Shown piece by piece: positions 21,136 to 38,600 of a DNA stretch of 64,000 nucleotides (its first letter is position 1; every line of letters starts with the position of its first letter). The notes beneath the pieces are model-generated. The model was given only the letters and a program-made list of their open reading frames with translations. It did not search any database and was not told where the DNA came from. The translations under genes were made by a program, and so were the position numbers. Source of the DNA: Mesorhizobium sp. B2-7-1 (lineage in GTDB: Bacteria; Pseudomonadota; Alphaproteobacteria; Rhizobiales; Rhizobiaceae); assembly GCF_006440735.1 (NCBI RefSeq), contig NZ_VFUA01000012.1:37528-101527 (forward strand), given 5' to 3'.

Positions 21136-21159
21136 TTTTCCACCCTTCGGGTAGGGGAA

Positions 21160-21269
21160 TAGGGGAGTAAGGCAGTAGGGGAGTAGGGAAGGCAAGGAAG
21201 GTGGGGGAGACCGGTTGGAGAAGCGCAAACCATCATTTCTCCCTACTCCCCTACTGCCTTACTCCCCTA
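21160..21269. repeat. 30-bp inverted repeat between binding-protein and permease genes
   Basis: The arms at 21160-21189 and 21240-21269 are perfect complements over 30 bp, separated by 50 bp. The left arm is built of AGGGGAGTA-type units around AAGGCAGT, the right arm of CCCCTACT units. Further imperfect copies of the unit flank both arms. In RNA it could form a long hairpin between the binding-protein gene and the permease gene. The purine-rich strand also has four runs of three or four G. Confidence 0.85.
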
Positions 21270-21282
21270 CTCCCTTCCTTCC

Positions 21283-22272: not shown

Positions 22273-22334
22273 TCGATCCTCCGTTTGATCCTTGGGCGCC
22301 GGATGCCTCGGCCAGGGCCGGCGCTAACTTTCGT

Positions 22335-23411: not shown

Positions 23412-23462
23412 TGACCTCCTCCCGAGGACTGGCAGCCGCGTGCTGCCTCACTAATGTAACGG

Positions 23463-23495
23463 TAAATCGATTTTTCGTAGTTGTAAATCGTTTCA
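23463..23495. promoter_or_regulatory. paired LacI-type operators in the divergent promoter
   Basis: TAAATCGATTTT (23463-23474) and TAAATCGTTTCA (23484-23495) start 21 bp apart, two helical turns, between lacI and the dehydrogenase gene. Both match the perfect palindrome at 22239-22250. Confidence 0.65.
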
Positions 23496-23554
23496 TCGGG
23501 AGTAAGACTTGAATATGTAATTGACGCGATCCAATCGCGCCCGGGAGGAACAAC

Positions 23555-24586
23555 ATGTCCGACAAAACCTTGCCGCTGGTGATCAGCGCGCCTGAACCGC
23601 GCACGCTGGACCTGATCTTCACGCCGCCGCAGCTGGCGCTGTTTCGCAAAAAATATCGCATCGTCGAGACAACGCCTGAAGGCGTGGCGGAGTTGCCGCC
23701 GAATGTGCTGGCTGAAGCGCGCTACATCGTCGGCCAGCCGCCGATATCGCCTGAGACGCTGGAAAAGCTGAAGGCGCTGCGCTGCGTCTTCAACGTCGAG
23801 ACCAACCTCCTCAACAACATGCCTTATGAGACATTGTTCGCGCGCGGCATCCATGTCGTCACCACCGGCCTTGTTTTTGCCGAGCCGGTAGCGGAGCTCG
23901 GCCTCGCCATGGCGCTGAACCTCGCGCGTAACATCGTCGACGCCGACCTCGCGTTCCGCCAAGGCGAGGAATTGTGGGGCGGTGACGGCAACCAGTCCGC
24001 GCGGCTTCTCTCCGGCGCCGATGTCGGCATCATCGGCTTCGGCGATCTCGGCCGCGCGCTCAACCGGTTGCTGGCCGGCTTTCGCACCCGCACCAAGGTC
24101 TATGATCCGTGGCTGCCGCCGTCGATCCTGATCGACAATGGCGTCGAGCCGGCCTCGCTGAACGAGGTGCTGTCGCAAAGCGATTTCGTCTTCGTGGTCG
24201 CTTCGGTCACCAGCGAGAACCAGGGTTTTCTCGGCGCGGACTCCTTTGCCAAGATGCGCAAGGGCGCCGCCTTCATCCTGCTCAGCCGCGCCGGCGTCGT
24301 CGATTTTCCGGCGTTGATGGCGGCCGTGAAGAGTGGCCACATCGTTGCCGCCAGCGACGTTTTCCCGGAGGAGCCGCTCGCGCCGGACCATCCCGTCCGC
24401 GCCCTCCCCGGCTTCCTGCGTTCGGCGCATCGCGCCGGCGCGCTCGACCTCGCCTTCAAGCGGATGGGCGACATGGTGCTGGAGGATATGGACCTTATCG
24501 ATCGCGGGCTGCCGCCGCTGCGCTCCAAGCGGGCGGAGCGTGAGACGGTGTCGCGCATGCGCTCCAAGCCGGTCGACAGGAACTGA
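23555..24586 (+). CDS. D-isomer-specific 2-hydroxyacid dehydrogenase
   Basis: NAD-dependent dehydrogenase, 343 residues. The Rossmann motif is GIIGFGDLGRAL (near residue 160) and the substrate/NAD segment is LLSRAGVVDFPAL. The usual catalytic loop carries DVFPEEPL and the C-terminal catalytic histidine lies in RSAHRAGA. GGGAGGAAC precedes the ATG. It is divergent from the LacI/CUT2 operon and shares its operator region, so it probably oxidises or reduces an intermediate of the same sugar or polyol pathway; the substrate is unknown. Confidence 0.87.
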   Translation: MSDKTLPLVISAPEPRTLDLIFTPPQLALFRKKYRIVETTPEGVAELPPNVLAEARYIVGQPPISPETLEKLKALRCVFNVETNLLNNMPYETLFARGIHVVTTGLVFAEPVAELGLAMALNLARNIVDADLAFRQGEELWGGDGNQSARLLSGADVGIIGFGDLGRALNRLLAGFRTRTKVYDPWLPPSILIDNGVEPASLNEVLSQSDFVFVVASVTSENQGFLGADSFAKMRKGAAFILLSRAGVVDFPALMAAVKSGHIVAASDVFPEEPLAPDHPVRALPGFLRSAHRAGALDLAFKRMGDMVLEDMDLIDRGLPPLRSKRAERETVSRMRSKPVDRN

Positions 24587-24596
24587 GGACAGCCGC

Positions 24597-25274
24597 CTAA
24601 AGCGACCCCAACCGAAGCGCGTGGCGCGCGATTTGCCAGGCGGTCTCCACATGCCGCCGGGCCGCCGCCTCGGCCGCCTCCGGCTTGCGCGAGCGGATCG
24701 CATCCATGATCGCGTGCATTTCGGCGATCGCCGGCTCGCGGCGGTTCTGCGACAGGATCGTCATCGAACGCAGCTGGTTGATGCGGACATTGAGACCGGT
24801 GACGATCTCCCAGGCGATGCGCTTGTCGGCGGCCTCGAACAGCACCTCGTAGAAGCTCGCCGTCGCCCGCATCACCTCGGCCGGCACGCCAGACGCCCAC
24901 GCCTCGAGCAGCTTTGTCAGCGCCGCATCGAGCAAGGCGATCTGATCGTCGGTGGCCGAGGTGGCGCAGGCCCTCGCCGCGATGCCTTCCAGCAGCGCGC
25001 GCAGCTCGTAGATCTCGTCGGTCCGGCCGAGATCGGGCTTCGCTACGGCCGGCCCATGCCCGGGTATCATCTGCACCAGGCCTTCGGTCTCAAGCTGCCG
25101 CAATACCTCGCGCACGACCGAACGGCTGACCCCGAGCTGATCGCATAGCGGCCGCTCGACCAGCCTTTCGCCGGGCTGGAAATGGAAATCCATGATCGCC
25201 TCGCGCATGCGCTCCAGCGCCAGCGTCCTCAACGTCTTGGCGGAGCGGTCGATACGAAGCGTGTCGTCAGCCAT
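24597..25274 (-). CDS. GntR-family regulator, FadR subfamily
   Basis: The 225-residue regulator has an N-terminal winged helix (LERPLCDQLGVSRSVVREVLRQLETEGLV pattern, residues about 40-65) and a C-terminal FCD effector domain with metal-ligand histidines in AEMHAIMDAI and ARRHVE. I chose ATG 25274 because AGGGAAAA precedes it; in-frame ATGs at 25316 and 25361 would reach into or through the promoter and operator. It is divergent from the Rut-like operon, whose promoter carries a GntR-type palindrome. Confidence 0.9.
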   Translation of the reverse strand: MADDTLRIDRSAKTLRTLALERMREAIMDFHFQPGERLVERPLCDQLGVSRSVVREVLRQLETEGLVQMIPGHGPAVAKPDLGRTDEIYELRALLEGIAARACATSATDDQIALLDAALTKLLEAWASGVPAEVMRATASFYEVLFEAADKRIAWEIVTGLNVRINQLRSMTILSQNRREPAIAEMHAIMDAIRSRKPEAAEAAARRHVETAWQIARHALRLGSL

Positions 25275-25322
25275 TTTTCCCTGAATCCCTGGCCTCGTCA
25301 CAAAAACAGATTCCATGACCGG

Positions 25323-25361
25323 TTGACAAGGCACTTGGCACTCCATAGCATGGTATACCAT
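25323..25361 (+). promoter_or_regulatory. promoter with overlapping FadR-type operator
   Basis: TTGACA at 25323-25328 and TAGCAT at 25346-25351 are spaced 17 bp and point toward the gene at 25415. The perfect 12-bp palindrome ATGGTATACCAT (25350-25361) overlaps the end of the -10 and matches the TGGTATACCA style of FadR-subfamily operators. Binding there would block RNA polymerase. Confidence 0.7.
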
Positions 25362-25414
25362 AAGACGATATAGAAATCGATGCGGTCGCGAGCGGCTTCA
25401 TCCCGAGGAATTCC

Positions 25415-26002
25415 ATGCAGCCGGCCATTCGCAAGATCGTGACCTATACCGAGAACACGCTGATCGAAGGCGGCAGGGCAGCGCCCAGGCCATTGCGCCT
25501 GATCGGCGTCGCCGCGGTGCTCACCAACCCATGGGCCGGCCGCGGCTTCATCGAGGATCTCTCTCCCGAAATCCGCGCCTTCGCGCCGGTACTTGGCGAA
25601 ACGCTGACCAACGAGATCATCGGTATCGCGGGCTCCGGCGAAGCCATCGAAGGCTATGGCAAGGCGGCCATCTGCGGCACGTCGGGCGAGGTCGAGCATG
25701 CGTCGGCGCTGATCCACACGCTGCATTTCGGCAACCATTATCGCCGCGCCGTCGGCGCCAAGACCTACCTCGCCTTCACCAATCTGCGCGGCGGTCCGAA
25801 CACCCCGATCATGATCCCGTTGATGGACAAGAACGACGAAGGCCGCCGCTCGCATTACCTGACCGTGCATTTCCAGATCGGCGACGCCCCTGCGCCCGAC
25901 GAGCTGGTGGTGGCGCTCGGCGCTTCGATCGGCGGCCGCCCGCATCACCGCATCGGCGACCGCTACCAGGATCTGAAGCAGTTCGGAGACCTGCATGGCT
26001 GA
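25415..26002 (+). CDS. amino acid synthesis family protein (DUF1185, PF06684)
   Basis: The 195-residue protein belongs to the DUF1185/AA_synth family (RKIVTYTENTLIEGG near the start, AAVLTNPWAGRG, then YGKAAICGTSGEVEHASALIHT and GNHYRRAVGAKTYLAFTN). Structures of this family were described, as I recall, as a variant of the Bacillus chorismate-mutase fold, related to the YjgF/RutC fold. GAGGAA lies before the ATG. It overlaps the next gene by 8 bp and leads the operon. Function is unproven. Confidence 0.87.
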   Translation: MQPAIRKIVTYTENTLIEGGRAAPRPLRLIGVAAVLTNPWAGRGFIEDLSPEIRAFAPVLGETLTNEIIGIAGSGEAIEGYGKAAICGTSGEVEHASALIHTLHFGNHYRRAVGAKTYLAFTNLRGGPNTPIMIPLMDKNDEGRRSHYLTVHFQIGDAPAPDELVVALGASIGGRPHHRIGDRYQDLKQFGDLHG

Positions 26003-27821
26003 CGCCACGATGATCCGCAGCAAGGCTCCCGACGGCACCGGGTTCATCCGCGCCGGTTCGGGCGCGCCGGTGCTGCTCATCCACGGCGTCGGCATGGACG
26101 CCGCGATCTGGCAGCCGCAGATCGCCGCCATGCAGGACCGCTTCGACGTCATCGCCATTGACATGCTCGGCCACGGCGCTTCGCCTTTGCCTCCGGAGGA
26201 CGCCGACCTCTCCGACTTCGCCGGTCAGGCGATCCGCCTGCTTGATCATCTTGGCCTGGATCGCGTCGCCCTCATCGGCCACTCGATGGGTGCGCTGGTT
26301 GCGCAGGAAATCGCGCTTCGCGCGCCCGCTCGCGTCGGCGCCGTCGTATGCCTCAACGCCGTCTTCCGGCGTCCGCCCGAGCTCGCGCAAGCGGTGCGCG
26401 AACGGGCGGCGGCGCTCGGCGGCCCTGGCGATCCGGCGGCCATCGCCGCGACGATCGCACGCTGGTTCGGCAATCCGATTCCGCCGGCTCTTTCGGATGC
26501 GGCCGCGACGGCCCGCGCGGCGCTCGAAAGCGTCGACGCCGAGGGCTATGCCCGCACCTATCGCCTCTTTGCCAGCGCCGATACCGCGCACGCCGATCAC
26601 CTCGCCGACCTCGTGGCACCGGCACTGTTCATGACCGGCTCGGAAGATCGCAACTCGACCCCCGCCATGTCGGCGGCGATGGCGCGGCTCGCGCCGACCG
26701 GGCAATGCCTGGTGCTCGCCGGCGAAAAGCACATGATGACAATCGCTTCGCCGCAAAAGGTGACTCAGCGCATCACGGCCTTTCTCGACCAGGTCGCGGC
26801 TGTTCAGCCTCAGGCGGCGAAAGTCGATCCCTCATCCGACGCCCCCGCATTCGACGCCATGGAGTTCCGGCGCGCGCTGGGCTCCTTCCTGACCGGCGTC
26901 ACCATCGTCACCACGATCGACGAGACCGGCGATGCGCGCGGCTTCACCGCCAACTCCTTCACCTCGGTCTCGCTCGATCCGCCGCTGGTGCTGGTCTGCA
27001 TCGCCAAGAAGGCGCTGGGGCATCAGGCCTTCTCGACCTCGAGAGGCTTCGCCATCAACATCCTGGCGGAAGCCCAGAAAGCGGCGTCCGGCATCTTCGC
27101 CTCAAAGGCCGCCGACAAGTTCGCCTCCGTGGCTTGGCAGTCCGGACAGACCGGCAATCCGCTGATCGACGGGTCGGTCGCGGTGTTCGATTGCGGCATG
27201 GAGCAACTGGTCGACGCCGGCGACCATTCGATCCTCATCGGCCGTGTCCATGACTTCAGCCACAATGGAGCGCAGCCACTCGGCTACTGCCGCGGCGCCT
27301 ATGTCACGCCGGGTCTGAGCCAGGAGGCACTCGCGGCGGCCGCCCCGCCCGGCACCGAGGTCGGCGCGATCCTCGAGAACGAAGGTCGCGTGCTCTTCTT
27401 CGAAACCGCCGAGGGGTCCTACCAATTGCCGGCCGGCCGGGGCCTCGGTGCAGCGAGCGATGCCAGCAGCCTCAGGGGGAAACTCGCCGCCAGGGCGATC
27501 GAGGCCGATCTCGGCTTCCTCTACGCGGTTTGGGACGACGCGTCGGATGCCGCGCGCACCCACGTCTATTATCGCGGGACGGTGGATGCCCCTGTCTCCG
27601 GCGACGGCCAGATCCGCTTTGTCGAGATCGAACGCATTGCCGAACTGAAGATCGCCGACCCGGCAGTGCGTTCGATGCTCACCCGCTACGCGCGCGAGCG
27701 CGCCGAGGACACGTTCGGCGTCTATGTCGGCAACGAGGTCGAAGGCGAGGTCCGGCCGCTCGCCAGGCCGGCGCCGTCGTCGCCAATCCATTCCGACCCA
27801 ATCCATTCCGGCCAGCGGTGA
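25995..27821 (+). CDS. alpha/beta hydrolase - flavin reductase fusion with degenerate Nudix-like tail
   Basis: A 608-residue protein of three parts. Residues 1-265 are an alpha/beta hydrolase with nucleophile GHSMGA (Ser97), acid near 217-218 (SED) and His246 (GEKHMM). Residues about 285-440 are a flavin reductase (HpaC/RutF type: FRRALGSFLTGVTIVTT, GFTANSFTSVSLDPPLVLVCI, GRVHDF). Residues about 455-575 resemble a Nudix fold (VGAILENEGRVLFFE, YQLPAGRGLG) but lack the glutamates of the Nudix box. In the Rut pathway RutD and RutF are separate proteins of the first two kinds. A 13-bp unit repeats with a 15-bp period at the 3' end (PIHSD PIHSG). Confidence 0.85.
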   Translation: MADATMIRSKAPDGTGFIRAGSGAPVLLIHGVGMDAAIWQPQIAAMQDRFDVIAIDMLGHGASPLPPEDADLSDFAGQAIRLLDHLGLDRVALIGHSMGALVAQEIALRAPARVGAVVCLNAVFRRPPELAQAVRERAAALGGPGDPAAIAATIARWFGNPIPPALSDAAATARAALESVDAEGYARTYRLFASADTAHADHLADLVAPALFMTGSEDRNSTPAMSAAMARLAPTGQCLVLAGEKHMMTIASPQKVTQRITAFLDQVAAVQPQAAKVDPSSDAPAFDAMEFRRALGSFLTGVTIVTTIDETGDARGFTANSFTSVSLDPPLVLVCIAKKALGHQAFSTSRGFAINILAEAQKAASGIFASKAADKFASVAWQSGQTGNPLIDGSVAVFDCGMEQLVDAGDHSILIGRVHDFSHNGAQPLGYCRGAYVTPGLSQEALAAAAPPGTEVGAILENEGRVLFFETAEGSYQLPAGRGLGAASDASSLRGKLAARAIEADLGFLYAVWDDASDAARTHVYYRGTVDAPVSGDGQIRFVEIERIAELKIADPAVRSMLTRYARERAEDTFGVYVGNEVEGEVRPLARPAPSSPIHSDPIHSGQR

Positions 27822-27828
27822 GAGACTG

Positions 27829-28881
27829 ATGAAGTTTTCGCTTTTCGTCCATATGGAGCGCTCGGATCTCGCCAAGCCGCATTCCGAATTGGTGGCGGAA
27901 CTGGAAGAACTCGTGCTGCTGGCGGAAGCGGCAGATTTCGAGACGGCCTGGATCGGCGAGCATCACGGGATGGAATTCACCATCTCGCCGAACCCGTTCA
28001 TCAACATCGCCTATCTCGCCGCGAAGACGAAAACCATCCGGCTCGGCACCGGCACGATCATCGCGCCCTTCTGGCATCCGATCAAACTCGCCGGCGAAGC
28101 GGCGATGGCCGATGTCATCACCGGCGGCAGGCTGGACCTGGGCATCGCGCGCGGCGCCTACAGCTATGAGTATCAGCGTGTCTTTCCGGGGCTTGATGCC
28201 TGGGGCGCCGGCCAGCGCATGCGCGAGATCATCCCGGCCATCCGTGGCCTCTGGGACGGCGACTACGAGCACACTGGCGAATTCTGGCAATTCCCGCCGA
28301 CCACATCCTCGCCGAAGCCTTCGCAAAAACCCTACCCGCCGATCTGGGTGGCCGCGCGCGATCCGAACTCGCACGATTTCGCGGTCGCCAACAAATGCCA
28401 GGTGCAGGTGACGCCGCTTGCCTCCGGCGATGGCGAAGTGGCGAGCCTGATGGAGCGCTTCAACGCCGCCTGCCAGGCCCATCCGGACATCGCGCGGCCG
28501 GAAATCATGCTCTTGATGCACACCTTCGTCGCAGAGGACGCCGCCGACGCCGAACGGCTGACGCAGGACCTGTCGCAATTCTACTGCCAGTTCGGCGCCT
28601 GGTTCCAGAACAAGAAGCCTGTGCGCCAGGGCGTGCTTGAGCCACTGACCGAGAACGAGATCGCGGCGATGCCGCAATACGCGCCCGACAAGATCCGGCA
28701 GAACCTCGTCATCGGCGAGGCCGACGAGGTGATCGCCAGGCTGAAGACCTACGAGGCGCAGGGCTACGACCAGTACTCGATCTGGATCGACAGCGGTCTC
28801 TCGCATGAGCGCAAGAAGAAATCGCTGCAGCTGTTCATCGATAAGGTGATGCCGGCCTTCCAGGAGGCAGGGTCGCGATGA
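27829..28881 (+). CDS. LLM-class flavin-dependent monooxygenase
   Basis: The 350-residue luciferase-like monooxygenase (F420/FMN family) has GEHHGMEFTISPNP, LGTGTIIAPFWHPIKLAGE, LDLGIARGAYSYEYQRVF and IWVAARDPNSHDFAV, typical LLM segments. The ATG at 27829 is 7 bp after the fusion gene; an earlier in-frame start lies inside that gene. It probably receives reduced flavin from the fused reductase. By analogy with RutA it may cleave a C-N or similar bond in a heterocycle, but the substrate is unknown. It overlaps the ALDH by ATGA. Confidence 0.9.
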   Translation: MKFSLFVHMERSDLAKPHSELVAELEELVLLAEAADFETAWIGEHHGMEFTISPNPFINIAYLAAKTKTIRLGTGTIIAPFWHPIKLAGEAAMADVITGGRLDLGIARGAYSYEYQRVFPGLDAWGAGQRMREIIPAIRGLWDGDYEHTGEFWQFPPTTSSPKPSQKPYPPIWVAARDPNSHDFAVANKCQVQVTPLASGDGEVASLMERFNAACQAHPDIARPEIMLLMHTFVAEDAADAERLTQDLSQFYCQFGAWFQNKKPVRQGVLEPLTENEIAAMPQYAPDKIRQNLVIGEADEVIARLKTYEAQGYDQYSIWIDSGLSHERKKKSLQLFIDKVMPAFQEAGSR

Positions 28882-30353
28882 GCAGCACCGCCTTCAGAAA
28901 CTACATAGACGGCCAGTTCACTGAGCCCACTTCCACCTTCGACAGTATCGATCCGTCGACAGGCTTGCCCTGGGCGGCGATGCCGGCCGCGTCCATTGCC
29001 GATACCGACCGCGCCGTGGAGGCCGCGCACCGGGCGCTGCGTTCCGGCCCCTGGGCCGCGATGACCGCGACCGCGCGCGGAAAACTGCTGGTGAAGCTTG
29101 GCGATCTCGTCGCCGCCAATGCCGGCCGGCTGGCCGAATTGGAAACGCGCGACACCGGCAAGATCATCCGCGAGACGCGCGCCCAGATCGCCTATGTCGG
29201 CGACTATTACCGCTATTATGGCGGGCTGGCCGACAAGCACGAAGGCGCCTTCATCCCGATCGACAAGCCCGACATGGAAGTGACGGTACGGCCCGAGCCG
29301 ATCGGCGTCGTCGCCGCCGTCGTGCCGTGGAACTCGCAGCTCTTCCTGTCGGCGGTCAAGCTCGGTCCGGCGCTGGCCGCCGGCTGCACCGTCGTGCTCA
29401 AGGCGTCCGAGGATGGCCCGGCGCCGCTGCTCGCTTTCGCCGAGTTGGTTAGCGAAGCCGGCTTTCCAGCCGGCAGCGTCAACATCATTACCGGCTTCGG
29501 CCATGATTGCGGGCATCGCCTGACCAGCCATCCGCTGGTCGCCCGCGTCGCCTTCACCGGCGGTCCGGCGACCGCCCGGCGGATCGTGGCCAACACGGCC
29601 GAGAACCTCGCCTACACGACGCTCGAGCTCGGCGGCAAAAGCCCGGTCGTCGTCTTCGCCGACGCCGATCTCGACAGCGCCGCCAACGCCGTTGTCGCCG
29701 GCATCTTCGCGGCGACCGGCCAGAGCTGCGTCGCCGGCTCGCGGCTTTTGGTCGAGCGTTCGGTCAAGGACGATTTCCTTGCGCGGCTGAAACGCAAGGC
29801 CGAGGCCATCGTCATCGGCGACCCGCAGGACCCGGCGACCGAGATGGGCCCGCTGGCGACGGCGCGCCAGCGCGAAAGGATCGAGGCGATCGTCGCGCAA
29901 AGCCTGGCGACGGGTGGGCGGCTGGTCACCGGCGGCGCGCGGCCTAAGGACAAGGCAAACGGATACTACTACGCGCCGACGATCATCGAGGCGCGGGATC
30001 AGACGCTCGCCTGCGTGCGCGAAGAGCTGTTCGGACCGGTGCTGAGCGCAATCGCCTTCGGCAGCGAGGCCGAGGCGCTGGCTTTGGCTAACGACACGCA
30101 ATTCGGGCTCGCTTCCGGCGTCTTCACCTTGAATCTCGCCAAGGCGCATCGCATGGCGCGCGGCATCCATGCGGGCGTCGTCTGGGTCAACACCTACCGC
30201 GCCGTCTCGCCGCTGGTTCCCTTCGGCGGCTATGGCCTTTCCGGTCTCGGCCGCGAAGGCGGCCTCGATGCGATCCGCGACTACACGCGCTCGAAATCGG
30301 TGTGGATCCGCACCTCGGACGACCCGATCCCCGATCCCTTCGTCATGCGCTGA
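28878..30353 (+). CDS. aldehyde dehydrogenase
   Basis: NAD(P)-dependent aldehyde dehydrogenase, 491 residues, with the general base in LELGGKSPVVVFADAD, the catalytic Cys in FAATGQSCVAGSRLLVE and a C-terminal PFGGYGLSGLGREGG motif. It overlaps the monooxygenase by ATGA. In Rut a malonic-semialdehyde reductase (RutE) handles the end product; here an oxidising enzyme appears to take that place. The exact aldehyde cannot be read from sequence. Confidence 0.9.
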   Translation: MSSTAFRNYIDGQFTEPTSTFDSIDPSTGLPWAAMPAASIADTDRAVEAAHRALRSGPWAAMTATARGKLLVKLGDLVAANAGRLAELETRDTGKIIRETRAQIAYVGDYYRYYGGLADKHEGAFIPIDKPDMEVTVRPEPIGVVAAVVPWNSQLFLSAVKLGPALAAGCTVVLKASEDGPAPLLAFAELVSEAGFPAGSVNIITGFGHDCGHRLTSHPLVARVAFTGGPATARRIVANTAENLAYTTLELGGKSPVVVFADADLDSAANAVVAGIFAATGQSCVAGSRLLVERSVKDDFLARLKRKAEAIVIGDPQDPATEMGPLATARQRERIEAIVAQSLATGGRLVTGGARPKDKANGYYYAPTIIEARDQTLACVREELFGPVLSAIAFGSEAEALALANDTQFGLASGVFTLNLAKAHRMARGIHAGVVWVNTYRAVSPLVPFGGYGLSGLGREGGLDAIRDYTRSKSVWIRTSDDPIPDPFVMR

Positions 30354-30418
30354 AACGGCGTGGCGAAGGTTGGACTGACAAGAACAAGAAACGGAACAAC
30401 CAATCAGAGGAGAATGAC

Positions 30419-31423
30419 ATGAAACTGATTTTCGCCGGCATCCTTGCCGGGTTGATGGCGACCACCGCCGCCAAGGCCGACGAGATGGTGTTCACCAGCT
30501 GGGGTGGAACGACGCAGGAGGCCCAGACCAAGTCCTGGGCTGAGCCGTTCTCCGCCTCGTCGGGCATCAAGGTGCTGCAGGACGGTCCGACCGATTACGG
30601 CAAGCTGAAAGCCATGGTCGACGCCAAGAACGTCACCTGGGACGTCGTCGACGTCGAGATGGACTTCGCCATCAAGGCGGCCAAGGACGGCCTGCTCGAG
30701 CCGATCGACTTCGCCGTCGTGCCGAAGGACGATCTCGACCCGCGCTTCTCGAACGAGAATGCCGTCGGCAGCTTCTATTATTCCTTCGTGCTCGCCTGGA
30801 ACAAAAGCGCCGTCTCCGGCGAGCCGGCAAGCTGGGCCGACATGTTCGACACCAAGAAATTTCCCGGAAAGCGCACCTTCTACAAATGGTCGGCGCCGGG
30901 TGTGATCGAGATCGCGCTGCTCGCCGACGGCGTGCCGGCCGACAAGCTCTATCCGCTTGATCTCGACCGCGCCTTCAAGAAGCTCGACACCATCAAGTCC
31001 GACATCGTCTGGTGGGGTGGCGGTGCGGAGTCGCAGCAGCTGATCGCTTCCGGCGAGGCCGCCTTCGGCCAGCTCTGGAACGGCCGCGTCTTCGCGCTGG
31101 AGAAGGACGGCGCCGATGTCGGCGTCTCCTGGAACCAGAACTTGACCGCCGCCGACGTGCTTGTCGTGCCGAAGGGCGCCAAGAACAAGGACGCCGCCAT
31201 GAAATTCCTCGCCGCGGCGACCAGCCCGACCGGTCAGGCGAAATTCGCCGAGGCGAGCGGCTACGCGCCGATCAACACCAAGGCCAAGGCCGAGATGCCG
31301 GCCGATGTGGTCAAGGGCCTGCCCGACGCTCATGTCGACAGCCAGATCAATCTCGATATGAACTACTGGGCCGAGCATCGCGACGAGATCGCCACGCGCT
31401 GGTACGCCTGGCAGGCGAAGTGA
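30419..31423 (+). CDS. ABC transporter substrate-binding protein, polyamine/opine type
   Basis: Periplasmic binding protein of the PotD/SBP_bac_8 class, 334 residues from the ATG at 30419 (AGAGGAGA before it). The signal peptide is short (MKLIFAGILAGLMATTAAKA-DE, cleavage near residue 20). The mature start MVFTSWGGTTQEAQTKSWAEPF is typical of polyamine-type importers. It is the first of four transporter genes in the Rut-like operon and presumably delivers a nitrogenous substrate to it. Confidence 0.9.
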   Translation: MKLIFAGILAGLMATTAAKADEMVFTSWGGTTQEAQTKSWAEPFSASSGIKVLQDGPTDYGKLKAMVDAKNVTWDVVDVEMDFAIKAAKDGLLEPIDFAVVPKDDLDPRFSNENAVGSFYYSFVLAWNKSAVSGEPASWADMFDTKKFPGKRTFYKWSAPGVIEIALLADGVPADKLYPLDLDRAFKKLDTIKSDIVWWGGGAESQQLIASGEAAFGQLWNGRVFALEKDGADVGVSWNQNLTAADVLVVPKGAKNKDAAMKFLAAATSPTGQAKFAEASGYAPINTKAKAEMPADVVKGLPDAHVDSQINLDMNYWAEHRDEIATRWYAWQAK

Positions 31424-31447
31424 CGCCCTTTCTTTCATGACAAAACT

Positions 31448-31469
31448 CGGAACGGCGCTGGCCGTCCCG
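31448..31469 (+). other. hairpin between binding-protein and permease genes
   Basis: CGGAACGGC and GCCGTCCCG pair around a GCTG loop with one mismatch. No T-run follows. Its place just after the binding-protein gene suits a transcript-stabilising stem that keeps more binding protein than permease mRNA. Confidence 0.4.
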
Positions 31470-31491
31470 ATCCGCAATCCGGGATACCGCC

Positions 31492-32352
31492 ATGTCGGTG
31501 GAAGCACAGCAAGGAATCGCAACCCCGCGAATACCGGCAGGCCTCGGCGGCCTGCTTCCGGCGTTGATCCTGATCGGACTGTTTTTCGTCGTGCCGGTAC
31601 TGGCGCTGTTGCTGCGCAGCGTCACCGACCCCGCTCCGGGCCTGCAGAATTATGCGGCGCTGCTGGGCGACGGCACATATGCGCGGGTGTTCTTCAACAC
31701 TTTTCTGGTCGCCGCCGTCGTCACCATCGTCACCGTGCTCGTCGCCTTCCCGGTCGCCTGGATGCTGGCGATCATGCCGCCCGTACTGGCCTCGATCCTG
31801 TTCGGCATCATCATCCTGTCGATGTGGACGAACCTGTTGACCCGCACCTATGCCTGGATGGTGCTCCTGCAGCGCACCGGCGTCATCAACCGGGCGCTGA
31901 TGGGCGCCGGCATCATCGACCAGCCGCTGCCACTCATCAACAACCTCACCGGCGTCACCATCGGCATGGTCTACATCATGCTGCCCTTCATGATCCTGCC
32001 GCTGGTCGGCACCTTGCGCGCGATCGATCCGATGACCTTGCGCGCCGCCGCGCTCTGTGGTGCCAGCCCGCTGGCAGCATTCCGCCGCATCCTTTTGCCG
32101 CTCTCGCTGCCCGGCATCGCCGCCGGCGGGTTGATGGTCTTCGTCATGTCGCTCGGTTATTTCGTCACGCCCGCCTTGCTCGGCGGCACGTCGAACATGA
32201 TGCTCGCCGAAATGATCGCGCAGATGATCCAGTCGCTGCTCAACTGGGGTCTGGGCAGCGCAGCCGCCTTCATCCTGCTCGTCGTCACCATGGCGCTCTA
32301 TGCGCTGCAGCTGCGCCTTGTCGGCGCCAGACGCACGACGGGAGGCGCCTGA
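31492..32352 (+). CDS. ABC transporter permease (PotB type)
   Basis: Inner-membrane permease, 286 residues with about six hydrophobic segments and the EAA loop AAALCGASPLAAFRRILLPLSLPGIAAGG. It is the PotB-like partner of the permease next to it. The stop is immediately followed by the next start region (ATG at 32354), so translation is likely coupled. Confidence 0.92.
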   Translation: MSVEAQQGIATPRIPAGLGGLLPALILIGLFFVVPVLALLLRSVTDPAPGLQNYAALLGDGTYARVFFNTFLVAAVVTIVTVLVAFPVAWMLAIMPPVLASILFGIIILSMWTNLLTRTYAWMVLLQRTGVINRALMGAGIIDQPLPLINNLTGVTIGMVYIMLPFMILPLVGTLRAIDPMTLRAAALCGASPLAAFRRILLPLSLPGIAAGGLMVFVMSLGYFVTPALLGGTSNMMLAEMIAQMIQSLLNWGLGSAAAFILLVVTMALYALQLRLVGARRTTGGA

Positions 32353-32353
32353 G

Positions 32354-33154
32354 ATGCTGCTCGACTATGACCGCCTCGGCTGGCTGAAGGCAGCACTGCT
32401 CGCCTTCACCGCACTGGTCGCCGCCTTCCTGCTGCTGCCCGTGGTCTTCATCGTGCTGCTCTCCTTCGGCTCGTCGCGCTGGCTGGCCTTCCCGCCGCCC
32501 GGCTGGACGCTGAAATGGTACCAAGAGCTGTTTGCCGATCCGTCCTGGATTGAGGCCGCGCTGACCAGCGCCCGCATCGCCACGATGACGGCGATCCTCG
32601 CCGTCACCATCGGCCTGCTCGCTTCCTTCGCGCTGGTGCGCGGCCAGTTCCGAGGCCGCGAGATCCTGCGCGGACTGCTGCTCACGCCGATGGTGCTGCC
32701 GGTGGTCGTCTTCGCCATCGCCATTTACGCCTTTTTCTTGAGACTTGGCCTCGGCGGCACCACGATCGGTTTCGTCGTCGCTCACACCGTGCTTGCGCTG
32801 CCCTTCGCCATCATCCCGATGGCCACCGCGCTCGAAGGCTTCGACAAGTCGATCGAGGATGCGGCCATCGTCTGCGGCGCGAGCCCGCTCCAGGCCAAGC
32901 TTCGCATCACTCTGCCGTCGATCCGCATCGGCATCTTCTCCGCCGCGATCTTTTCCTTCCTGGCCTCCTGGGACGAGGTGGTGGTGGCGATCTTCATGGC
33001 GAGCCCCACCTTGCAGACCTTGCCGGTCAAGATCTGGGGCAGCCTCCGCTCGGACCTCACGCCTGTGATCGCCGCCGCCTCCAGCCTGCTGGTCGCGCTC
33101 ACGCTGGCCCTGATGATCGTGACGGCACTCTTGCGCCGAAAGCTCCAGACATGA
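32354..33154 (+). CDS. ABC transporter permease (PotC type)
   Basis: Second permease, 266 residues, with the EAA loop DAAIVCGASPLQAKLRITLPSIRIGIFSA. The ATG at 32354 lies 2 bp after the first permease; longer frames intrude into it. It overlaps the ATPase by ATGA. Confidence 0.92.
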   Translation: MLLDYDRLGWLKAALLAFTALVAAFLLLPVVFIVLLSFGSSRWLAFPPPGWTLKWYQELFADPSWIEAALTSARIATMTAILAVTIGLLASFALVRGQFRGREILRGLLLTPMVLPVVVFAIAIYAFFLRLGLGGTTIGFVVAHTVLALPFAIIPMATALEGFDKSIEDAAIVCGASPLQAKLRITLPSIRIGIFSAAIFSFLASWDEVVVAIFMASPTLQTLPVKIWGSLRSDLTPVIAAASSLLVALTLALMIVTALLRRKLQT

Positions 33155-34227
33155 CCCAGCCCTTTCTCTCGATCCGCAAATTGCGCAAGGCGTTCGGCGC
33201 CTTCACCGCCGTTCACGATGTGACGCTGGATATTCCGAAGGGCGAGTTCCTGACCTTCCTCGGACCGTCCGGCTCGGGTAAATCGACCACGCTCTACGCC
33301 ATCGCCGGCTTCCAGGACCCGACGTCGGGCGATGTCTTGCTGCAGGACAAATCGCTGCTGTCGGTGCCCTCGCACAAGCGCAACATCGGCATGGTCTTCC
33401 AGCGCTACACGCTGTTCCCGCATCTGAGCGTCGCCGAAAACGTCGCCTTCCCGCTCCGCGTTCGCCGCCGGCCCGAGGCCGAGGTCAAGCGCAAGGTCGC
33501 CGACATGCTCGCCCTGGTGCGGCTGGAGAACTTCGCCGAGCGTCTGCCCGCCGCGCTCTCGGGCGGCCAGCAGCAGCGCGTCGCGCTTGCCCGGGCGCTT
33601 GCCTACGATCCACCGATCCTTTTGATGGACGAGCCGCTCTCGGCGCTCGACAAGAAGCTGCGCGAGGAGATCCAGGCCGAGATCCGTCGCATCCATCGCG
33701 AGACCGGCGTCACCATCCTTTACGTCACCCACGACCAGGAAGAAGCGCTGCATCTGTCGGACCGCATCGCGCTCTTCCGCGATGGCCGTATCGAGCAGAT
33801 CGGCACCGGCGAGGACCTTTACCTGAGGCCCACCACCGATTTCGTCGCAGGCTTCATCGGCAACTCGAATTTCCTCGCCGCCGAGCATCTGGAAACCGTG
33901 GGCGGCGCTTCCACCATCCGCCTCGCCGACGGCGCGCTTGTCTCCGGCATTAATGCCAATGGCAGCTTCGCCCCCGGGCAGAAAACCAGGCTGATGATCA
34001 GGCCGGAAGCGTTCCGCCTGGAGCGCTCGCCGAACAATGCGGAACTTTCGGTCGAGATCGTCGATGTCGCCTTCTACGGCGAGCGCCGCCGCATTGTGGC
34101 GCGCACGAGCGCCGGACAGGAAATCGACATCCGGCCGACCTCCGCAGCGCTTGCCGCGCAGGATGTTGCATCGTCTCATCGCCCGGTGTTTTTCGATCCG
34201 GGCGCGGCGTTCCTGTTTCCCGCCTGA
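33151..34227 (+). CDS. ABC transporter ATP-binding protein (PotA type)
   Basis: ATPase of the polyamine-type importer, 358 residues: Walker A GPSGSGKSTT, Q-loop VFQRYTLFPHL, signature LSGGQQQR, Walker B LLMDEPLSALD, switch THDQEEAL, followed by a C-terminal TOBE domain (about residues 270-355) that may sense substrate or regulate the complex. It is the last gene of the operon that starts at 25415; about 230 bp without a gene follow. Confidence 0.93.
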   Translation: MTQPFLSIRKLRKAFGAFTAVHDVTLDIPKGEFLTFLGPSGSGKSTTLYAIAGFQDPTSGDVLLQDKSLLSVPSHKRNIGMVFQRYTLFPHLSVAENVAFPLRVRRRPEAEVKRKVADMLALVRLENFAERLPAALSGGQQQRVALARALAYDPPILLMDEPLSALDKKLREEIQAEIRRIHRETGVTILYVTHDQEEALHLSDRIALFRDGRIEQIGTGEDLYLRPTTDFVAGFIGNSNFLAAEHLETVGGASTIRLADGALVSGINANGSFAPGQKTRLMIRPEAFRLERSPNNAELSVEIVDVAFYGERRRIVARTSAGQEIDIRPTSAALAAQDVASSHRPVFFDPGAAFLFPA

Positions 34228-34461
34228 GCAATTGATTGTCGCTCCGGTTCGGGCCCGGGCTATGAACAAATTTTGATTTTGCCGCGATGGTACGGTCAAG
34301 ACGGCCTCACGCAACCTTGAATGCCGCAGCGCAACATGACCGATCTGTAAGCTGACAGCGCAGCGCCGGCAGGACTACTGTCGCGCCAATCGACGAGGTC
34401 GATCCCAACCTCCAACCATCCTGAAACGGCTAGATATTCTGGCCCGCAGATGGACGGCACC

Positions 34462-35673
34462 ATGAGCATTTCATCAACACGACAACCCGTTCGCAACCGG
34501 CCGAAGCGCTCTCGCAGCATCGTGCTTTTGGCCGCGCTCATCCTGCTTGGCGGCGGCTATGGCCTGTGGCGCAACCATGCCCAGGCAAAGGCAGCGGCGA
34601 CCGCTGCGTCGGCGCAGCCCGCGCCCAAGGTCCCGGTCACCGTCGCCACCGTGCGGAAGGCCGATTTCCCCCTTTACCTCTACGGGCTCGGCACGGTGAC
34701 GCCGTTGAACAGCGTCAGCATCTCCAGCCGTGTCGCCGGCGTCGTCGACCAGGTTCCGGTCGACCAGGGGCAGATGGTCAAGCAGGGCGACCTGCTCGCC
34801 GAGATCGACCCTCGCCCCTATCAGGCGGTGCTCGATCAGGCGAAAGCCAAGCAGGCTGAGGACGAAGCGACATTGAAGAACGCGCAAGTCGTGCTCAATC
34901 GCCTTTCCACGCTGCTCAAAAAGACCTTCGAAACCCAGCAGGACGTCGATAATCAGCAGGCGGTGGTCACGACCACTGCCGCAACGATAGAGGGCGACAA
35001 GGCCGCCATTGAGGCGGCGCAACTCAATCTCGATTTCACCAGGATCATCGCGCCGCTGGCCGGCAAGACGAGCTTCCGCACCATCGATCCGGGCAACATC
35101 GTGCAGGCCGGCCAGAGTCCCGGGCTTTTCACGGTCGTGCAGCTTCAGCCCATCTACGTTTCGTTCACGCAGCCGCAGGACGAAGTCGCAACCATCAACA
35201 AGGTGTTCGCGGCCGGCGCCGTGCCGATCGACACGCTTGGCGCGGACATGAAGACCGTGCTGGCCAGCGGCAAGCTGGAAGCGGTCCAGAACCAGGTCGA
35301 TCAGGCCTCCGGCACAATTTCGCTCAAGGCGACATTCGCGAACCAGGACAATGCATTGTGGCCGGGTCTTTCCGTCAGCACGCGCATACGCATCGGCACG
35401 ATGTCCGGCGCGATCGTGGTGCCGGACGAAGCCGTCCAGCATGGTCCTGACGGGCTCTTCACCTATGTCGTCGGCGACGACGGCAAGGTCCATCGGCAGA
35501 CCGTCAAGACAGGCCCTTCGGACGGCGGCGAGACGGTCGTCACCGACGGCTTGAATCCTGGGCAGCGGGTGGTGGTTGCCGGTCAATACCGGGTGGTCGA
35601 TGGCGCAAGCGTCGACGCCACCACGGCTTCCGCCGCCGGACAGACGCAAGGCAATTCCGGAGGTGCAAGCTGA
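34462..35673 (+). CDS. efflux RND transporter periplasmic adaptor subunit
   Basis: Membrane fusion protein of the HlyD/AcrA class, about 403 residues. It has an N-terminal transmembrane anchor (SIVLLAALILLGGGYGLW), no lipobox, a barrel-sandwich domain (VSISSRVAGVVDQVPVDQGQMVKQGDLLAEIDPRPY), a short coiled coil and beta-barrel domains. The ATG at 34462 has GGACGG upstream; another ATG at 34450 would add four residues. It overlaps the pump gene by one base. The 230 bp before it hold no gene and no clear promoter that I could identify, and no regulator is adjacent. Confidence 0.9.
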   Translation: MSISSTRQPVRNRPKRSRSIVLLAALILLGGGYGLWRNHAQAKAAATAASAQPAPKVPVTVATVRKADFPLYLYGLGTVTPLNSVSISSRVAGVVDQVPVDQGQMVKQGDLLAEIDPRPYQAVLDQAKAKQAEDEATLKNAQVVLNRLSTLLKKTFETQQDVDNQQAVVTTTAATIEGDKAAIEAAQLNLDFTRIIAPLAGKTSFRTIDPGNIVQAGQSPGLFTVVQLQPIYVSFTQPQDEVATINKVFAAGAVPIDTLGADMKTVLASGKLEAVQNQVDQASGTISLKATFANQDNALWPGLSVSTRIRIGTMSGAIVVPDEAVQHGPDGLFTYVVGDDGKVHRQTVKTGPSDGGETVVTDGLNPGQRVVVAGQYRVVDGASVDATTASAAGQTQGNSGGAS

Positions 35674-38600
35674 TGGCTGCGATCGGTGTTTCCACGCCTT
35701 TCATCCGCTACCCGGTCGCCACCTCGCTGTTGATGATCGGCGTGTTGTTCGTCGGCGTGGTCGCTTATCTCAACCTGCCGGTCGCACCGATGCCCAACGT
35801 CGACTTCCCGACGATCCAGGTGTCCACCAGCCTGCCGGGCGCCGACCCGATCACCATAGCGTCGTCGGTGACCCAGCCGCTCGAGACGCAGTTCGCGCAG
35901 ATCCCCGGCATCGCCGAGATGACGTCGAGCAGCCTGTCCGGTTCCAGCCAGATCACCCTGCAATTCGCTCTCGACGTCGACATCGCCGCGGCCGCCGGGC
36001 TGGTGCAGTCGGCCATCAATGCCGCCGGCGGGCAATTGCCAAAGAACCTGCCCAATCCCCCGACCTACAGGGAGGTCAATCCGACGGATTCGCCGATCAT
36101 GCTGATCGGCGCGAGCTCGACCGACCTGCCGCTGACGACGCTGAGCGACGACGTCTACACCAAGCTTGCGCAGGTGATCAGCCATGTCGACGGCGTCGGC
36201 CAGGTCCTGGTCGGCGGCCAGCAGACGCCGTCGATCCGCGTCCAGCTCGATCCGGCCAAATTAGCGGCAAGGGGCCTGTCGCTGGAGGCGGTACGCACGC
36301 CGCTCTCGATCGGCACCGTGGACCTGCCCAAGGGCAACATTCAGGGCGAAGTGCGCTCCTTCACCATCTTCTCCAACGACCAGATGACCGCCGCCGACGA
36401 CTGGAACAACGCCATCATCGCCTATCGCGACGGTGCGCCGGTGCGGGTCAAGGATGTCGGCCGGGCGGTGCTCGACGCGCAGGACTACACCCAGGCCGGC
36501 TGGGCCGACACGACGCGCGGCGTCGTGCTTGTCATCTTCAAGGAGCCGGGCGCCAACATCATCGACACGGTCGACAAGATCAAGGCCGAGCTGCCGATGC
36601 TGACCGCCTCGATGCCGGCGTCGCTCAAGCTGCAGGTTCTTTCCGACCGCACCCAGACCATCCGCGCTTCGGTGGCGGACGTGCAGTTCACGCTGCTGCT
36701 CACCATCGGGCTGGTCGTGATGGTGATCTTCCTGTTTCTGCGCAATGTCTGGGCAACGGCCATCCCCGCCTTCACCGTGCCGCTGGCACTGCTTGGCACC
36801 TGCGGCCTGATGTGGTCCGCCGGCTATTCGATCGACAATCTGTCGCTGATGGCCTTGACGATTTCCATCGGCTTCGTCGTCGACGACGCCATCGTCATGC
36901 TGGAAAACATCGTCCGCTACATCGAGCACGGCGAGAAGCCGATGCAGGCCGCGATCCGCGGCGCTAGCGAGATCGGCTTCACCATCATGTCGATCTCGAT
37001 TTCGCTGGTGGCGGTGCTGATCCCGCTGCTCCTGATGAGCGGCATCATCGGCCGCCTGTTCAAGGAGTTCGCCGTCACGCTGGCGATGACAATCCTGGTC
37101 TCGGCCTGCGTTTCGCTGACCCTGACCCCGATGCTCGCCTCGCGCTTCATCAAGCCGGCGGCCGAGGAGCATCACGGCAGGCTCTACCGCTGGAGCGAAA
37201 GCGTCTTCGATGGCATGCTGCGCGCCTATGAGCGCGGCCTCGACCGGGCGCTCAGGCATCGCTTCATCACGCTTCTGGCGTTCCTGACCTGCGTCGGGCT
37301 GACCGGCTATTTCTTCACCCTCGTCCCGAGCGGGTTCTTCCCGCAGCAGGACACCGGCCTGATCTTCGGCCAGGTGATCGCCGGCCAGGATGTCTCCACC
37401 GGCCAGATGCAGTCCTACATGGCGCAGTTCGCCGGGATCGTCTCCAAGGATCCGGCGGTGGCGCATTTCGCGGCATCGACCGGCGGCAGCGGCAACACGC
37501 AGAACACCGGCCGCATGTTCATCCAGCTGAAGCCGCGCGACGAGCGCGACGCTTCGGCCGACCAGATCATCCGGCGATTGCAGCCGAAGCTGTCGGCCGT
37601 CCAGGGCGCGCGCCTGTTCATGCAGGCTTCGCAGGACGTGCGCGTCGGCGGCAAGCTCTCCGCCTCGCAATACCAGTATGTGCTGGAGAGCAGCGATCTG
37701 GACTCGCTGGATGGCTGGGCACCCAAGCTGTTGACGGCTTTGCAGCGCCTGCGCGAATTGCGGGACGTCTCGACCGACCAGATGAGTTCCGGCACGACGC
37801 TCACATTGCAGGTCGACCGCGACCAGGCGGCCCGCTATGGCCTGACGGCGAACGACGTCGACAACACGCTCAACGACGCCTTCGGCCAGCGCCAGATCGC
37901 ACAATACTTCACGCAGCTTTCAACCTATGACGTGATCCTCGAGGTGCTGCCGTCGCTGCGCGGAAACCTCAGGGCGCTCGACCAGATCTATCTGACCACG
38001 TCGAGCGGTTCGCAGGTGCCGCTTTCGGCCATCGCCAAATGGACGACGAAGCCGGTGCAGCCGCTGGTCATCAACCATGAAGGCCAGTTCCCGTCGGTGA
38101 CGATCAGCTTCAACCTGGCGCCCGGCGTGGCGCTCGGCCAAGCCACTGCCGCGATCGACCGGACCGCTGCTCAGATGGGGTTGCCCGCGACCATCCAGAC
38201 CAATTACACCGGAACGGCGCAGGCCTTCCAGCAGTCGCTGTCATCGGTGCCGGTGCTCATCCTCGGCGCCTTGGTCGTGGTCTATTTGATCCTCGGCATC
38301 CTCTACGAAAGCTACATTCACCCGCTGACCATTCTGTCCACCCTGCCCTCGGCCGGGCTTGGCGCGCTCGGCACGCTGCTGGTCTTCCACATGGAGTTCA
38401 ACCTGATCGGCCTGATCGGCGTCATCCTGCTCATCGGCATCGTGAAGAAGAACGGCATCATGATGGTCGACTTCGCCATCGCGGCCGAACGGGACCAGCA
38501 TCTGAGTTCCCTGGAATCGATCCGCCAGGCCTGCCTGCTCAGGTTCCGGCCCATCATGATGACCACCATGGTCTCGATGCTCGGCGCACTGCCGCTGATG

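What the first reader, a model, noticed from the sequence alone, without database searches (positions are those of the whole stretch)
25415..34227. A re-assembled Rut-like system: DUF1185, fused hydrolase/flavin reductase, LLM monooxygenase, ALDH and its own importer
The Rut pyrimidine pathway uses RutA (LLM), RutF (flavin reductase), RutD (alpha/beta hydrolase), RutC (YjgF-type fold) and RutE. Here an LLM enzyme, a single protein joining hydrolase and reductase, and a DUF1185 protein (a chorismate-mutase-like fold related to YjgF) form one operon, with an aldehyde dehydrogenase in place of RutE, a polyamine-type ABC importer, and a FadR-type repressor. This looks like an analogous oxidative ring or C-N cleavage pathway for a nitrogenous substrate that is taken up by ABC transport. 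I know of no characterised pathway with this composition.
Basis: inference. Interest (0 to 1): 0.75.

Follow-up and report, generated by a model that had tools for sequence, protein, structure and literature searches.

The report
Trigonelline-degradation operon with fused enzymes
This stretch of the genome of a soil bacterium, probably a Mesorhizobium, carries the gene set known from the breakdown of trigonelline (a plant compound made from vitamin B3), with two of the enzymes joined into one protein and an importer whose receptor belongs to the same family as two well-studied GABA-binding proteins, so those proteins may in nature serve mainly to take up trigonelline.

Summary
The operon is real (24597-34227) but is not an unknown Rut-like pathway. 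It matches the trigonelline (N-methylnicotinate, tgn) operon gene for gene: an Acinetobacter plasmid has the same order GntR / DUF1185 / hydrolase / tgnA / tgnB / tgnC, LLM 61% identical to annotated tgnB. Of 80 related genome loci, 66 keep DUF1185-hydrolase-reductase-LLM-ALDH collinear. The hydrolase-reductase fusion (TgnD::TgnA plus a Nudix-like third domain) occurs in 29 of 80, with at least four gains or losses. A palindrome, TGGTATACCA (or variant), precedes DUF1185 in 61 of 80 loci. The unexpected result is the importer: its receptor belongs to the family of the GABA-binding proteins Atu4243 and Pf622 (the latter the binding domain of the sensor iGABASnFR). Searched from Atu4243 alone, 60 of 65 loci lie in a full tgn set, 4 (Pf622 type) in a diverged tgn-like set, 1 in neither. 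In the locus nearest Atu4243 a GntR/FCD regulator lies exactly 11 genes from the receptor, the spacing of the published repressor Atu4232, whose mode of derepression was reported unknown. Trigonelline as ligand and inducer is predicted, not tested; so is growth of this host on it.

The parts
24597..25274 (-). GntR/FCD regulator, likely the tgn repressor (listed ORF runs to 25361)
   Evidence: Pfam FCD 3e-25 and GntR 3.4e-16; a relative lies within 6.5 kb of the LLM gene in 70 of 80 genome loci. Start at 25274 is inferred
25350..25361 (.). Palindrome ATGGTATACCAT, likely operator
   Evidence: 10-mer TGGTATACCA (60) or a variant (1) upstream of DUF1185 in 61 of 80 loci, against 45 of 4400 random 250-mers. 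The 12-mer occurs once in the 7.03-Mb genome, but so does its reversed control
25415..26002 (+). DUF1185/AA_synth protein, TgnF-like
   Evidence: Pfam 223.2 bits; 63% to the PK01 protein in the same place; cavity residues E92/H95 in 81 of 81 rows
25995..27821 (+). Fused TgnD (alpha/beta hydrolase, about 1-268) and TgnA (flavin reductase, about 281-440) with a Nudix-like C-terminal domain (about 441-592)
   Evidence: triad S97/D218/H246 in 81 of 81 rows
27829..28881 (+). LLM monooxygenase, TgnB
   Evidence: 61% to annotated tgnB of Acinetobacter sp. PK01; the other four matches in this genome are partial and at most 40% identical
28878..30353 (+). Aldehyde dehydrogenase, TgnC
   Evidence: 65% to annotated tgnC of PK01 and 34% to the SSADH of that locus; N152/E250/C284 in 87 of 87 rows
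30419..31423 (+). Solute-binding protein of the Atu4243/Pf622 family
   Evidence: 4eq7 E 3.7e-144, 68.7% identity; GABA-contact positions kept
31492..32352 (+). ABC permease, PotB/PotH-like
32354..33154 (+). ABC permease, PotC-like (listed ORF starts at 32300; start inferred)
33151..34227 (+). ABC ATPase, PotA-like

Best explanation
This operon is predicted to degrade trigonelline: it holds the tgn gene set with the hydrolase TgnD and the flavin reductase TgnA joined in one protein, and it would likely import trigonelline through its ABC transporter and open the ring with the LLM enzyme TgnB, fed with reduced FMN by the fused reductase. Predicted steps: the Atu4243-type receptor and the Pot-like transporter bring trigonelline in. 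TgnA reduces FMN; TgnB uses FMNH2 and O2 to open the N-methylpyridinium ring to an N-methylformamido hydroxybutyrolactone; TgnC (the ALDH) oxidises it to the N-methylformamido-methylene succinate; the hydrolase domain (TgnD) splits that into succinate semialdehyde, formate, CO2 and methylamine. A succinate-semialdehyde dehydrogenase and the N-methylglutamate (methylamine) pathway, whose genes lie elsewhere in this genome, would finish carbon and nitrogen use. DUF1185 (TgnF) is a constant partner of unknown chemistry. The GntR/FCD protein would repress from the palindrome at 25350-25361 until trigonelline or an intermediate appears. Shown here: gene content, order, homology, conserved catalytic residues, the fusion, the conserved motif, and the link of this receptor family to tgn clusters. 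Inferred: every enzymatic step in this organism, the ligand and the inducer. The step chemistry is recalled from the Acinetobacter work, apart from the names and passages in PMC8269262 and PMC7913881.
For: Same gene order in Acinetobacter sp. PK01 with annotated tgnA, tgnB, tgnC (identities to window: DUF1185 63, hydrolase 40, reductase 56, LLM 61, ALDH 65%). Five of the 120 listed LLM homologues are named trigonelline monooxygenase, oxygenase component. 66 of 80 genome loci are collinear. S. meliloti pSymA carries the cluster, unfused, and only the strain with pSymA grew on trigonelline (PMC4207669, passage). The hydrolase domain matches alpha-(N-acetylaminomethylene)succinate hydrolase 3kxp (E 8.6e-18), whose substrate is close to the expected one; it is not the best hydrolase match. 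Methylamine genes: full mgs/gmaS/mgd set in this genome (GMAS 674 bits, cut-off 469.6), mgs/gmaS beside the cluster in 6 of 80 loci, and directly upstream on the same strand in L133 and L135. SSADH: 57% homologue in this genome, beside the cluster in 11 of 80.
Against: No growth or enzyme data for this organism. The PK01 names are annotation, and the primary trigonelline paper was not held. Only five of the 120 listed LLM homologues bear the trigonelline name. The hydrolase domain is only 40% identical to the PK01 one. Methylamine and SSADH genes are not beside the cluster here and only in a minority of relatives. No NCBIfam model for TgnB was matched above cut-off (best 25 of 28 shown). A related substrate is not excluded.
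Confidence: 0.9

Rival explanations
1. The same chemistry on a related pyridine carboxylate (homarine or another N-substituted nicotinate) rather than trigonelline.
For: Diverged clusters with DUF1185, LLM (37-43% to the window), ALDH and hydrolase exist (L014, L145, L146), and Pseudomonas-type sets with LLM 52-54% (L228-L231), so the module seems to serve more than one substrate.
Against: The window LLM is 61% to annotated tgnB and 43% to the M. loti NZP2037 one. PMC8269262 (passage) argues that TgnAB is unlikely to act on homarine and that Ruegeria pomeroyi grew less well on homarine than on trigonelline.
Confidence: 0.07
2. The importer is a GABA (or polyamine) importer that merely shares the operon; trigonelline enters by another route.
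For: Atu4243 is reported as highly specific for GABA (PMC3907764 and PMC6829864, passages); all eight GABA-contact positions are kept in the window protein; PA0222, only 33% identical to Atu4243, binds GABA (PMC6829864). Acinetobacter clusters carry a cytosine-type permease instead.
Against: Receptors of this family lie in a full tgn set in 60 of 65 loci found from Atu4243 alone, which a GABA importer would not explain by itself.
Confidence: 0.3
3. One reading: a new Rut-like pathway assembled from analogous parts.
For: LLM, flavin reductase, alpha/beta hydrolase and a chorismate-mutase-like fold together resemble Rut in outline.
Against: RutF and RutD models far below cut-off; RutA barely matched; no RidA-type (RutC) or nitroreductase (RutE) family among the ten proteins scanned; full match to the tgn order.
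Confidence: 0.02

Closest known systems
Trigonelline pathway tgnABCDEF of Acinetobacter (Perchat et al. 2018, not seen, cited in PMC8269262 and PMC7913881); annotated copy in Acinetobacter sp. PK01, NZ_CP094644
   Same: Regulator, DUF1185, hydrolase, reductase, LLM and ALDH in the same order and orientation; 40-65% identity
   Different: Here hydrolase and reductase are one protein; an ABC importer replaces the cytosine-type permease; no SSADH in the operon
S. meliloti pSymA cluster and SMa0793 (PDB 3rh7)
   Same: Same genes and importer; 3rh7 covers the reductase and Nudix-like domains (E 6.5e-65)
   Different: Not fused; has NIPSNAP and SSADH genes in the cluster; no TGGTATACCA site
Atu4243 of Agrobacterium fabrum and Pf622 of Pseudomonas fluorescens, GABA-binding proteins
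   Same: 68.7% identity to Atu4243; the eight GABA-contact positions kept; same genomic setting in relatives
   Different: Ligand here untested; the cluster around Pf622-type receptors is more diverged (LLM 52-54%)
Rut pyrimidine pathway
   Same: LLM plus flavin reductase plus alpha/beta hydrolase logic
   Different: Other subfamilies; no RutC- or RutE-type protein among those scanned

Membership tests
Trigonelline (tgn) operon | LLM close to TgnB with a flavin reductase (TgnA) | tested here: met
   61% and 56% to the annotated PK01 proteins
Trigonelline (tgn) operon | TgnC-type ALDH and TgnD-type hydrolase in the same operon | tested here: met
   ALDH 65% to PK01 tgnC; hydrolase domain 40% to the PK01 hydrolase in the tgnD place, triad intact
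Trigonelline (tgn) operon | DUF1185 (TgnF) partner | tested here: met
   near the LLM gene in 73 of 80 loci, in 4 more beyond the importer
Trigonelline (tgn) operon | SSADH (TgnE) in the cluster | tested here: not met
   None in the window operon; 57% homologue elsewhere in the genome; also absent from the fetched stretch in most relatives (11 of 80 have it), so not treated as defining
Trigonelline (tgn) operon | Growth on, and turnover of, trigonelline | not testable with these tools
   Needs the bench
Rut pathway | RutF and RutD equivalogs | tested here: not met
   95.0 of 254.75 and 83.9 of 238.5 bits
Rut pathway | RutC (RidA family) and RutE (nitroreductase) present | tested here: not met
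   Neither family among the ten proteins scanned
Atu4243/Pf622 receptor family | High sequence identity to Atu4243 | tested here: met
   68.7% over 313 residues
Atu4243/Pf622 receptor family | GABA-contact residues of Pf622 (W9, T13, F100, F/Y102, W202, R205, D228, Y264; PMC12999171) | tested here: met
   W28, T32, F119, Y121, W220, R223, D246, Y282 in the window protein
Atu4243/Pf622 receptor family | Binding of GABA | not testable with these tools
   Needs binding assays
Nudix hydrolases (C-terminal domain) | Nudix fold | tested here: met
Nudix hydrolases (C-terminal domain) | Nudix box REUXEEXGU (recalled) | tested here: not met
   Not seen by eye in the window sequence; no Pfam match in six copies. 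Filed as Nudix-like fold only

The most novel reading that the evidence does not exclude
The receptors known as the GABA-binding proteins Atu4243 and Pf622 (the latter the binding domain of the neuroscience sensor iGABASnFR) are by origin receptors for trigonelline or a close pyridine relative. GABA would be a look-alike ligand, as nicotinate-ring compounds such as nipecotic acid and guvacine are for animal GABA transporters (recalled). The repressor Atu4232 would be the tgn regulator, with trigonelline or an intermediate as its missing inducer, and trigonelline could drive GABA sensors.
Probability: 0.5. Interest if true: 0.68.

Novelty: new variant of a known kind. Interest (0 to 1): 0.52.

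Why it matters
The pathway is known. What is new to me is that a receptor family with solved GABA complexes is, in the genomes sampled, nearly always encoded inside trigonelline operons. A 2014 review (PMC3907764, passage) says that atu4243 is totally repressed by the Atu4232 protein and that derepression is unexplained; the synteny found here suggests an answer that one binding assay can test. It also points to a possible unrecognised ligand of GABA sensors. The recurrent TgnD-TgnA fusion and the conserved palindrome give markers for trigonelline users among plant-associated bacteria, where trigonelline is a reported activator of NodD2 (PMC11771551, passage).

Tried and rejected
Rut-like pathway: rejected on model scores and composition. 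Homarine genes: one search found nothing, so that rival is judged from PMC8269262 alone. The primary trigonelline paper was not held. Methylamine genes beside the cluster are supportive, not general: mgs/gmaS in 6 of 80 LLM-anchored loci and in 4 of 60 receptor-anchored stretches; in the L175 genome they lie just outside that stretch, in L237. One origin of the fusion: rejected on the LLM tree (least 4 changes, AU p 1e-6; 5 changes in the quick tree of 89 rows). Caveats: it is the LLM gene's tree; fusion was called from stop-to-stop ORFs; the joints of L059, L052 and L103 hold an internal Met, so those may be made as two proteins. One search used 59 of 89 rows: I dropped 11 rows of unknown state, L014, L009, L010 and 16 Mesorhizobium near-copies. 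The palindrome is absent from 19 of 80 loci, among them S. meliloti pSymA and both Agrobacterium loci, and no GTATAC core lies in L175, L236 or L237, so that lineage must use another site. The single 12-mer in the genome is not in itself remarkable: its reversed control also occurs once. The two identity groups of LLM plasmid hits (58% and up, 44% and down, in the 60 rows) are bridged by the 52-54% copies of L228-L231. Receptor locus L144 has no tgn set. Atu4243's own genome was not met; the nearest held one is 95% identical at the receptor. The receptor-anchored loci are partly the same genomes as the LLM-anchored ones (judging from equal contig lengths, L138 is L102 and L217 is L043) and are related to one another, so counts are not independent events. 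On print: Atu4243 occurs in six held papers; I saw passages of four and searched 'trigonelline' inside two (PMC12999171, PMC11113362: none). The one paper was not opened. Absence of the link from print is therefore not shown.
Full report

WHAT IT IS. A paper on a DUF1185 protein (PMC7913881, passages) names TgnF of the trigonelline pathway as a homologue; this lead gave the answer. A plasmid of Acinetobacter sp. PK01 carries GntR / DUF1185 / hydrolase / tgnA / tgnB / tgnC in the same order; window identities are 63, 40, 56, 61 and 65% for DUF1185, hydrolase, reductase, LLM and ALDH. Five of the 120 listed LLM homologues (4034 found among 7997 scored) are named trigonelline monooxygenase, oxygenase component; the rest have generic names or none. 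S. meliloti pSymA has the cluster, unfused, and PMC4207669 (passage) used growth on trigonelline to tell wild type from a strain without pSymA. The host is probably a Mesorhizobium: its LLM is 97% identical to that of Mesorhizobium sp. GbtcB19, within a well-supported Mesorhizobium clade.

CONSERVATION. Sixty-nine of 80 have DUF1185, hydrolase, reductase, LLM and ALDH within 6.5 kb; 66 of 80 have them collinear on one strand (no identity floor; in L056, L078 and L089 the reductase is a distant one elsewhere). DUF1185 is near in 73 of 80; four more (L047, L058, L062, L074) have it beyond the importer; the other three (L031, L077, L094) are cut by contig ends, judging from their ranges. The importer genes are near in 63-64 of 80, a NIPSNAP gene in 44, an SSADH gene in 11 and mgs/gmaS genes in 6. 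Catalytic residues are kept in all rows aligned (hydrolase triad 81 of 81, ALDH 87 of 87; rows were first filtered by identity).

FUSION. Hydrolase and reductase are one ORF in 29 of 80 genome loci: 21 Mesorhizobium, 5 in an Ancylobacter/Xanthobacteraceae/Acidisphaera group, and one each in Trinickia, Taklimakanibacter and Paracoccus. The LLM tree needs at least 4 changes (59 rows, 14 fused; one clade rejected, AU p 1e-6), and linkers differ in length. The tool cannot tell gain from loss. The two joined activities are not consecutive in the pathway, so loss of the stop codon between overlapping neighbours is the likely route (inference).

REGULATION. TGGTATACCA (60 loci) or a variant (L102) lies upstream of DUF1185 in 61 of 80 loci with a DUF1185 gene (7 plasmid and 73 genome loci; L014 left out), against 45 of 4400 random 250-mers of the same loci. 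It is present from Acinetobacter to Mesorhizobium and absent in 19, among them S. meliloti pSymA and Agrobacterium. The 12-mer occurs once in the 7.03-Mb genome, at this operon; its reversed control also occurs once.

THE IMPORTER. The binding protein is 68.7% identical to Atu4243; tgn-linked receptors of Agrobacterium rosae (L092) and S. meliloti (L008) are 88.5 and 85% identical to it. PMC12999171 (passages) lists eight GABA contacts of the Pf622 domain. In 70 aligned rows (window, Atu4243, Pf622, 67 tgn-linked receptors) seven are invariant, one partial row's gaps apart, and position 102 is Tyr except in Pf622, where it is Phe. To avoid anchoring on tgn I searched with Atu4243 alone: 18 of 397 order genomes and 48 of 394 family genomes matched at E 1e-100, and 13 of 398 phylum genomes at E 1e-60; the draws overlap. 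At E 1e-100, without the window's own genome, these are 65 distinct loci. Sixty hold a full tgn set in the fetched stretch (DUF1185, LLM and ALDH at 55% or more, reductase 40%, hydrolase 30%; 59 of 60, and L227). Four (L228-L231, receptor 84-96% to Pf622) hold a diverged set: LLM 52-54%, ALDH 53-56%, and DUF1185 57-59% in three, the stretch of L229 ending before it. Their LLM is 49-51% to PK01 tgnB, so their substrate may differ. One (L144) has only distant LLM proteins and a reductase. As a control, none of the four receptors 38-41% identical to Atu4243 lies near an LLM gene (L232-L235).

ATU4232. PMC3907764 (2014 review, passage) says that atu4243 is totally repressed by the atu4232 product and that derepression is unexplained. 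In the genome whose receptor is nearest to Atu4243 (95%; L175, L237), minus-strand genes run mgsA, mgsB, mgsC, gmaS, one ORF, GntR/FCD, then a 286-aa ORF, permease, ATPase, Fe-ADH, DUF1185, hydrolase, reductase, LLM, ALDH, NIPSNAP and receptor. The receptor is the eleventh gene after GntR, as 4243 is from 4232. I did not see the C58 record, and genes under 80-90 aa were not listed, so this is an inference from numbering and synteny.

CONFIDENCE. Trigonelline degradation: high. Trigonelline as importer ligand and as inducer: even odds. The GABA contacts are kept, and PA0222, 33% identical to Atu4243, binds GABA (PMC6829864, passage), so GABA binding by the window protein is likely too; which ligand matters is open. 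DUF1185: role unknown. PMC7913881 reports that TgnF stimulates TgnE-dependent oxidation and that attempts to see such an effect with HcdD failed. Both pathways pass a lactone, so lactone handling is a guess.

Noticed in passing
L014, L145, L146: Diverged clusters with DUF1185, LLM (37-43% to the window), ALDH and alpha/beta hydrolase, in L014 and L145 with a flavin reductase and an amino-acid-type ABC importer: probably a sister ring-opening pathway for another substrate.
   Followed up: partly
L228-L231: Pf622-type receptors (84-96% to the iGABASnFR domain) lie beside a diverged tgn-like set (LLM 52-54%) in all four such genomes met.
   Followed up: partly
L015:10513-10842 and 44 of 80 genome loci: A NIPSNAP-family gene lies near the ALDH gene in 44 of 80 tgn loci but is missing in the window's operon; its role is unknown.
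   Followed up: partly
L050, L051: Two Caballeronia genomes have two tgn-like sets back to back on opposite strands.
   Followed up: no
L056, L064, L065, L076, L078, L089, L098: These loci have no TgnA-type reductase between hydrolase and LLM; the reductase may be supplied from elsewhere.
   Followed up: no
L104:6990-7628 (own genome, contig C164): A second DUF1185 gene (34% to the first) beside a molybdopterin-type dehydrogenase, a MarR regulator and a hydantoinase-B-type protein: another context for DUF1185.
   Followed up: partly
L237:5979-6716 and L175:8709-9719: GntR/FCD gene and Atu4243-like receptor gene exactly eleven genes apart, matching the atu4232/atu4243 numbering; mgsABC-gmaS lie just upstream.
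   Followed up: yes
window 19370-24586 and 34450-38831: Neighbours look unrelated: a sugar-type ABC importer with a LacI regulator and a 2-hydroxyacid dehydrogenase on one side, an HlyD/AcrB-type efflux pump on the other.
   Followed up: no
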